From positions 278,761 through 342,760 of the forward strand of contig JAHXIP010000002.1 in NCBI GenBank assembly GCA_025655575.1: a stretch of DNA of 64,000 nt, read 5' to 3'. The notes under the pieces are model-generated. The model worked only from the letters and a program-made list of their open reading frames with translations, had not been told where the DNA came from and searched no databases. Source of the DNA: Candidatus Thiodiazotropha sp. (ex Monitilora ramsayi). Its GTDB lineage: Bacteria; Pseudomonadota; Gammaproteobacteria; Chromatiales; Chromatiaceae. Positions within the stretch are counted from its first letter, which is position 1, and each line of letters starts with the position of its first letter. Below, in pieces: positions 62,640-64,000 of this stretch. Both the position numbers and the translations under genes were made by a program.

Positions 62640-63337
62640 TAAAGCGTAATTACACACTGACCCCAATTATTCTTTGTTATGCCATTACTTCCCATTACCG
62701 CTCTGCCATTGCTAATTTTGCACCGAGCATTGCAAAAACTACTGCAAAAGTACGTTGTGCCATTTTTATTATATTTGGAGAATGAGCGACATAAGATCTA
62801 ACACTATTTGCAAATAATCCATACAATATAAATACAAATAGCGTCATGCCCATAAATATGCCACTAAGAAGAAGCATATTAACGATTGGTGATTCCGTTT
62901 CTGGCGGCACGAACTGGGGTAAGAATGCCAGGAAAAACAAGGATAACTTTGGATTCAAGATATTTATCAGGAATCCTTTGATACCAATCTCCCATGCTCC
63001 CTTATTACTATTTTTGCCTTCAATTTTCAAAGTGCCAGTTTCTTTCCACATTGACCATGCAAGATAAAGTAAGTAGGCAACACCAATAAACTTTATTAAT
63101 TGGAATGCAATGGCACTCATGTGAAGAATGGTAGCCAGACCAAGAATGCTTGCAAGCAAATGCGGAACGATTCCGACGGCACACCCAAAGGCTGCAAATA
63201 TGCTGGCACGCCAGCCTATAAACAGGCCTGTTGAAATTGTGTAAATAACGCCAGTGCCAGGTATTAGAACAACTATTAATGACGTAATAATAAATTCTGT
63301 ACTAAGCATTCTGTACCCTGCTTGTTTTTAGGCATAA
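62640..63337 (-). mobile_element. Putative integron gene cassette carrying the LysE-family gene (distal attC truncated; left boundary approximate)
   Basis: Cassette begins TTATGCC (63337..63331, minus); own R'' GGCATAAC at 62683..62676 after the stop codon is exactly complementary; no matching L'/R' arm seen. Confidence 0.65.
62695..63309 (-). CDS. LysE/RhtB family translocator
   Basis: 204 aa; LIPGTGVIYTISTGLFIGWRASIFAAFGCAVGI, KFIGVAYLLYLAWSMWK, GFLINILNPKLSLFFLAFLPQFV. Confidence 0.93.
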   Translation of the reverse strand: MLSTEFIITSLIVVLIPGTGVIYTISTGLFIGWRASIFAAFGCAVGIVPHLLASILGLATILHMSAIAFQLIKFIGVAYLLYLAWSMWKETGTLKIEGKNSNKGAWEIGIKGFLINILNPKLSLFFLAFLPQFVPPETESPIVNMLLLSGIFMGMTLFVFILYGLFANSVRSYVAHSPNIIKMAQRTFAVVFAMLGAKLAMAER

Positions 63338-63392
63338 CGTTTTGGGTAAGTTGCACCGTCTTTTGGCGTCAACTTTACCCACTGGTTATAGC
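63331..63392 (-). other. attC-like integron recombination site
   Basis: Minus strand GCTATAAC-CAGT-GGGTAAAGTTG-acgccaaaagacggtg-CAACTTACCC-AAAAC-GTTATGCC: R''/R' boxes, imperfect L''/L' stem with one extrahelical base. Confidence 0.8.
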
Positions 63393-63913
63393 AGCTTTAA
63401 ATTTACTGACTTTATCCCAATCTCAACCAACCCAGCGATTTCGTTTAGATTAACTTTCCTGGTAGAGAACGCCTTGACAACTAATTCTCGGTTGCCGCCT
63501 AAGCGTGTGAAAGCCCAAGCATATGGCGTACCACTGTTTGAAAATCCCTTCTTCATTTTCCAATTCAATCCGTTCACTTCTATGATTGAATCATATTGAT
63601 TCATGGAAGGATGACCATACCAGTACTCTAGAAATATGATGTGCCCATATGCGCTAGGCATATAGCCTAACGGTGCGAAACAAAAACGAATTTTATCCTT
63701 CCCATCTTCAGCGACAACATTAGGCATACAATTGTCTTCAAATAGTGAATCTCGAGGCATGGCATAATCTATGATCCACTTTTCGTCCGCTTTTGTAGAA
63801 AGCTCAACCCAACTAATTAGATCGAGATGAGGAACGTCGTATGACGCACACCCCACGAGAAAAAATAGAGTAAAAGCTAAGGGATTCTTGTTCATCTATC
63901 TATATCGCTATAA
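63338..63913 (-). mobile_element. Putative integron gene cassette carrying the lipoprotein gene
   Basis: Begins TTATAGC (63913..63907, minus), exactly complementary to its own R'' GCTATAAC (63392..63385); ORF stop lies inside R''. Confidence 0.75.
63386..63895 (-). CDS. Uncharacterised putative lipoprotein
   Basis: 169 aa; MNKNPLAFTLFFLVGCASYD with lipobox-like LVGC; no family recognised. Confidence 0.75.
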   Translation of the reverse strand: MNKNPLAFTLFFLVGCASYDVPHLDLISWVELSTKADEKWIIDYAMPRDSLFEDNCMPNVVAEDGKDKIRFCFAPLGYMPSAYGHIIFLEYWYGHPSMNQYDSIIEVNGLNWKMKKGFSNSGTPYAWAFTRLGGNRELVVKAFSTRKVNLNEIAGLVEIGIKSVNLKLL

Positions 63914-64000
63914 CAAATGGAATGGACCCGTCCCTCTTCAAACCGGCCTCGCAGTGGGCCACGATGGGTATGTAGGAATCCATCAATGAAGAAGGAGGGT

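What the first reader, a model, noticed from the sequence alone, without database searches (positions are those of the whole stretch)
62640..63914. Two-gene integron-like cassette array at the right edge of the window
Read on the minus strand: G|TTATAGC - 11 nt - lipoprotein ORF - stop inside GCTATAAC - stem-loop - G|TTATGCC - about 20 nt - LysE-family ORF - stop - GGCATAAC. For each gene the first 7 nt after the predicted crossover G| (TTATAGC, TTATGCC) is the exact complement of the R'' box 3' of the same gene. This is expected because cassettes excise as circles and carry their own matching R''/R' halves; matching for both cassettes is unlikely by chance. Both ORFs are compact, share one orientation, have very short leaders, and sit in visibly AT-rich DNA next to GC-richer core genes. 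The attC architecture is established knowledge; that this is an integron or a CALIN (attC cluster lacking integrase) is inference.
Basis: partly seen in the sequence, partly recalled or inferred. Interest (0 to 1): 0.88.

Follow-up and report, generated by a model that had tools for sequence, protein, structure and literature searches.

The report
Gene cassettes at a satellite integron platform
Two small genes at the edge of this genome fragment are genuine integron gene cassettes, and they appear to sit at one of about ten copies of an integrase-less docking platform scattered around the chromosome, so one integrase may serve many sites instead of the usual one.

Summary
The genome is a Candidatus Thiodiazotropha relative with two intact intI genes, neither in the window. 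A covariance model trained on other attC sites of these genomes hits the 64-kb window once, at 63332-63391 minus (E 9e-5); 193 kb of control sequence gives none. In the nearest relative the LysE cassette and right flank are kept but the preceding cassette differs, with the break at the R' box. Eight more distant congeners have the flanking channel gene without the cassettes. The site after lysE keeps only R''. The bases before the first GTT (63915-64000) are not attC or attI but the end of an IS1111-family element inserted at the crossover; the contig ends inside it. Synteny places the array behind an attI-like leader at the end of contig C1. That leader, resembling the attI of a long integrase (IntI-B), recurs without intI at roughly ten loci per genome; 8 of 9 well-defined copies in the near-complete relative head same-strand cassettes, with positions often conserved and contents changed. 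I read these as satellite attI platforms served in trans; that activity is inferred, not shown.

The parts
63915..64000 (-). Right end of an IS1111-family insertion sequence (subterminal repeat GGGACGGGTCCA at 63923-63934), abutting the cassette crossover; contig ends inside it
   Evidence: 99% identical to the end of a complete 1391-bp element in G014 (L052:6914-8304) with a DEDD/IS110-type transposase; same sequence at C12:1-90
63908..63914 (-). First cassette boundary G|TTATAG(C): crossover point after the G at 63914
   Evidence: Sequence; GTT follows the same IS end in C2, C12, G014 and G006
63386..63895 (-). Cassette 1 ORF, 169-aa lipoprotein-like protein, no Pfam or NCBIfam family
   Evidence: one relative (85%) in 5.8 billion proteins
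63332..63391 (-). attC site of cassette 1 (R'' CTATAAC, R' GTTATGC)
   Evidence: Only match of covariance model R1 in the window, 29.3 bits, E 9.1e-5; 7/7 R'' match and hairpin -19.2 kcal/mol
62695..63309 (-). Cassette 2 ORF, 204-aa LysE/RhtB-type exporter
   Evidence: PF01810 E 1.5e-32; 96% protein identity in L023
62676..62683 (-). R'' remnant GGCATAAC of the degenerate terminal attC
   Evidence: Exact complement of cassette 2 start; no attC by covariance model (1.7 bits)
61710..62588 (+). Right-hand flank: ion channel gene (PF00520), conserved in the genus, not a cassette
   Evidence: found in 10 genomes, followed by lysE only in G000 and G005

Best explanation
This is the distal part of an integron cassette array in a Candidatus Thiodiazotropha genome. 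The cassettes (lipoprotein, LysE exporter) were captured by an integron integrase at an attI-like site that has no intI beside it. That site belongs to a family of dispersed 'satellite platforms': a conserved upstream block (about 220 to 90 bp before the crossover, probably a promoter) joined to an attI-like sequence of imperfect 25-bp repeats ending ATAATCACCT|GTT. The sequence resembles the attI of the long integrase IntI-B encoded elsewhere on the chromosome. IntI-B most likely acts in trans on the platforms, inserting cassettes at attI and removing them between attC sites, so contents turn over while platforms stay put. At this platform an IS1111-family element has inserted exactly at the crossover, which probably separates the first cassette from the platform promoter and attI. 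The terminal LysE cassette has lost most of its attC and is probably fixed. Shown here: the attC, the cassette difference at the R' box, the leader family, the IS end. Inferred: IntI-B activity in trans, promoter function, that the IS joins the C1 leader to this array, and the consequences of the IS.
For: attC by an independent covariance model, one hit in 64 kb, none in 193 kb of controls. Cassette difference at the R' box against L023/G005. Array absent beside the same channel gene in 8 more distant congeners. Two intact intI genes, C20:6729 and C18:66290. Left flank of the G005 array matches the end of contig C1 and its right flank matches C2. Leader matched 12 times in the 9-contig G005 and at about 7 places here. 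8 of 9 well-defined G005 leaders are followed by attC hits on the same strand, 23 in all. Leader-type attI lies about 100 bp from the intI-B ORF in G010, with related versions beside intI-B in G000 and G005. No TIGR02249 match near the other G000 leaders at E 1e-3.
Against: The DNA between C1 and 64000 is not assembled, so the leader at this very locus rests on synteny. Some leaders have decayed attI or no attC (L086, L090, L091, L095, L096). Attachment-site types differ within one genome, and one IntI-B may not serve them all. A leader in G004 lies close to an intI remnant, so some platforms may simply be decayed integrons. No recombination was measured.
Confidence: 0.72

Rival explanations
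1. Ordinary CALINs by decay: a complete integron (intI-B, attI, cassettes) was copied to several loci and intI was lost at each, leaving arrays with relict attI that no longer take up cassettes.
For: intI remnant about 0.7 kb from a leader in G004; several decayed leaders; loss of intI is an accepted origin of CALINs (PMC8618304).
Against: Most dispersed leaders share the same upstream block at near-constant spacing (209-224 bp) in place of intI, with no intI remnant in G000; independent losses would leave varied remnants. Cassettes differ between species at conserved platforms.
Confidence: 0.22
2. Off-target insertion: cassettes were inserted by an IntI at chance chromosomal attG sites, with no dedicated platform.
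For: Off-target insertion is a described route to CALINs (PMC8618304; PMC12444791).
Against: The start of the arrays is a repeated leader of about 80 to 230 bp, not unrelated target sequence.
Confidence: 0.04
3. Chance: two neighbouring genes with accidental palindromes.
For: Only one full attC lies inside the window, and the terminal one is broken.
Against: Independent covariance-model hit, cassette difference at the R' box, intI genes, and 40 attC matches in related loci.
Confidence: 0.02

Closest known systems
[quoted passage not shown]
   Same: attC-bounded cassettes in one orientation with no intI found near them; intI genes elsewhere in the genome
   Different: Arrays in this genus begin at copies of an attI-like leader with a shared upstream block; CALINs are defined without attI
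Sedentary chromosomal integron (intI, attI, long array), e.g. Vibrio, Xanthomonas
   Same: Cassette type, attC structure, mostly unknown ORFs, presence of IntI
   Different: Instead of one long array beside intI, many short arrays spread over the chromosome
IS1111-family elements targeting attC (ISKpn4, ISPst6; IS1111-attC group; PMC11187229)
   Same: DEDD transposase, subterminal inverted repeats, noncoding region after tnp, insertion at integron recombination sites
   Different: In the three left junctions seen the target is an attI-like leader at its crossover, not one end of an attC
Conserved-position CALINs of Xanthomonas (PMC12444791)
   Same: Several intI-less arrays at conserved chromosomal positions in one genus
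   Different: No attI was reported at those CALINs in the passages read; here a repeated attI-like leader marks the start

Membership tests
Integron gene cassette array | attC site with R''/R' boxes and an imperfect hairpin after the ORF, same strand | tested here: met
   63332-63391 minus, E 9.1e-5, model not trained on it; met for cassette 1 only
Integron gene cassette array | Second attC after the last gene | tested here: not met
   Only R'' is left; 1.7 bits, E 7.2
Integron gene cassette array | Cassette exchange with breaks at the R' box | tested here: met
   Window against L023, similarity begins at the R' box of the lysE cassette
Complete integron | intI next to attI and array | tested here: not met
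   No intI in the window or near the C1 end; intI on C18 and C20
CALIN | At least two attC sites without intI nearby (IntegronFinder 2 default) | tested here: inconclusive
   One full attC in the assembled part; the rest lies in the assembly gap. The orthologous G005 array has at least 3 model hits and no intI nearby
attI site | Lies between intI and the array, ends at G|TTRRRY | tested here: met
   For the leader type: G010:C25, beside the intI-B ORF. At the window locus itself not assembled
attI site | Recombines with attC under its IntI | not testable with these tools
   Needs an assay
IS1111 family | DEDD transposase, subterminal repeats, 3' noncoding region | tested here: met
   PF01548 and PF02371, repeats TGGACCCGTCCC/GGGACGGGTCCA, 283-nt noncoding region, in the G014 copy; only the end is in the window
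IS1111-attC group | Targets attC sites | tested here: inconclusive
   Three left junctions lie in attI-like leaders; a 92%-identical fragment at C23:1302-1354 lies at a cassette end and may be an attC insertion

The most novel reading that the evidence does not exclude
A distributed integron: one integrase (IntI-B) serves around ten attI platforms spread over a chromosome, each with a common promoter block and its own small cassette set, and the platform (block plus attI) spreads as a unit of its own. Related duplicated leaders occur in two other gammaproteobacterial families (G052, G152), so the layout may be wider and invisible to software that defines CALINs without attI.
Probability: 0.4. 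Interest if true: 0.8.

Novelty: new variant of a known kind. Interest (0 to 1): 0.6.

Why it matters
CALINs are common and usually read as debris or off-target insertions. If many begin at copies of a real attI, cassette capture is not confined to one locus, several first-position cassettes can be expressed at once, and conserved CALIN positions get a simple cause. It is directly testable with an attC x attI assay on platform copies. It also shows an IS1111-family element inserted at attI-type sites, which could switch a platform off.

Tried and rejected
The 90-bp sequence at the contig end was first taken as the 3' half of a repeated attC; the full copy in G014 showed it is an IS1111-family end. 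A simple hairpin scan for attC was too permissive and missed several real sites; it was replaced by an array walk and a covariance model. That LysE relatives in other taxa would also lie in cassettes: no convincing covariance-model hit in those loci, although the model may miss their attC type. A guide-RNA match between the IS noncoding region and the attI target: a 7-nt and a 6-nt match, reached by 40 of 2000 shuffles, too weak to claim. A leader peptide running through attI: the frame is shared by several copies but has in-frame stops in others, not claimed. Rfam found nothing at this locus. No structure prediction was run for IntI-B.

Full report
What is there. The window is the end of contig C2 of a 3.91-Mb, 37-contig genome; the contig stops exactly at base 64000. 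Its nearest relative among the genomes held, G005 (same genus), contains locus L023 and is a Candidatus Thiodiazotropha genome (record JAHXIQ; contig length 847,738 and coordinates agree). Both ORFs stand: a 169-aa lipoprotein-like protein with one relative among 5.8 billion proteins, and a LysE/RhtB-type exporter.

Is it a cassette array? I trained a covariance model on 19 attC sites from other loci of this and related genomes, none from the window. Over 64 kb it gives a single match, 63332-63391 minus, 29.3 bits, E 9e-5. On 193 kb of control loci it gives none. On 20 candidate array loci, some of which supplied the training sites, it gives 40 matches. The exact 7-nt match between cassette start and own R'' holds for both genes; at random GTTA sites of the window it holds in 4 of 236, and with a hairpin in 0 of 236. 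The site after lysE keeps R'' only.

Does it behave like cassettes? In G005 the same lysE and channel gene are present (94% DNA identity over 3.3 kb), but the preceding cassette encodes a different protein and has a different attC; similarity starts at the R' box. Eight more distant congeners have the channel gene followed by other sequence. So the array entered this spot in the lineage of these two genomes, or was lost from the others, and its contents have changed since the two split.

What lies upstream? The last 86 bases before the crossover are repeated at C12:1-90 and in G014 and G006. In G014 they are the end of a complete 1391-bp element with a 338-aa IS110/IS1111 transposase and subterminal repeats TGGACCCGTCCC / GGGACGGGTCCA. 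Its left end follows ATAATCAmCT in C18, C31 and G014, and its right end precedes GTTA in C2, C12, G014 and G006. In L023 the uninterrupted site reads ATAATCACCT|GTTAGCC. The element is therefore inserted at the crossover. Insertion sequences of this family that target attC are known (PMC11187229); here the target is attI-like.

The platforms. The left flank of the G005 array matches the end of contig C1 (92% over 2 kb), which stops inside a leader. This leader is repeated: G005, in only 9 contigs, has 12 matches, and this genome 8 matches at about 7 places. Its right half is made of imperfect 25-bp repeats ending at the crossover, after which the copies differ. Its left edge is a palindrome, TGTAGGAAnAAGmCTACAGACA, 209-224 bp from the crossover in most copies from this genus. 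The same attI-type sequence lies about 100 bp from the long integrase ORF (IntI-B) in G010, and related versions lie beside intI-B here on C18 and in G005. Eight of nine well-defined G005 copies are followed by attC sites on the leader strand, 23 in all; the exception is C2:138755. Neither intI of G005 (C9:63618, C1:613) is near them. Flanks of several platforms are conserved between the two species while cassettes differ.

How it probably works. IntI-B inserts cassettes at platform attI sites and removes them between attC sites; the shared upstream block probably drives expression of the first cassettes. At this locus the IS has probably separated the promoter and attI from the lipoprotein gene. 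These steps are inferred. The main rival is that platforms are old integrons that lost intI. An intI remnant near one leader in G004 suggests this has happened at least once, but the common upstream block and continued turnover argue against it as the general account.

Known or new. The array itself is a new member of a known kind. A set of attI-like leaders without intI in front of many arrays was not found described in seven literature searches, which cover open-licence papers only. A review gives off-target insertion, intI loss or rearrangement as origins of CALINs (PMC8618304), and Xanthomonas CALINs at conserved loci are described without attI in the passages read (PMC12444791). Two complete genomes of other gammaproteobacterial families also hold at least two copies each of a related leader, but with only one weak attC match behind them.

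Noticed in passing
L040:10324-11739 (C18) against L112:85-1503 (G005 C1): intI-B of this genome and of G005 occupy the same spot beside a 96%-identical flank but share only 69% DNA identity, as if the integrase had been replaced in place.
   Followed up: no
L040:10282-11664: IntI-B is 460-492 aa, with about 140 residues before the core-binding domain that match no Pfam family.
   Followed up: no
leader copies, e.g. L023:1846-1867, L082, L083, L054: An 18-bp palindrome TGTAGGAAnAAGmCTACA at near-constant distance from attI, followed by a conserved TGGCATC, looks like a regulator site and promoter; absent from the window.
   Followed up: partly
L061 (G004) and L065 (G010): Directly after attI an unrelated mobile-looking sequence begins (GTTGAACTAAACCGC...); in G004 it carries a multi-copy tyrosine recombinase of 297 aa.
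   Followed up: no
G004:C1:4263392-4263556: A 66-aa IntI C-terminal fragment lies about 0.7 kb from a leader, probably a decayed intI.
   Followed up: no
window 62640-62670; L005:1360-1390; L005:1960-1990: Short GGGGTCAG...CTGACCCC-type repeats lie where attC sites should be, both after lysE and in the C23 array.
   Followed up: no
L126 and L129 (G152): Two platforms 0.9 Mb apart carry the same first cassette and the same 150-bp upstream block, a block different from that of Thiodiazotropha.
   Followed up: no
window 25916-26118 and 33015-33199: Tandem glycine riboswitch aptamers (minus strand) and a 6S RNA gene, all above Rfam thresholds.
   Followed up: no
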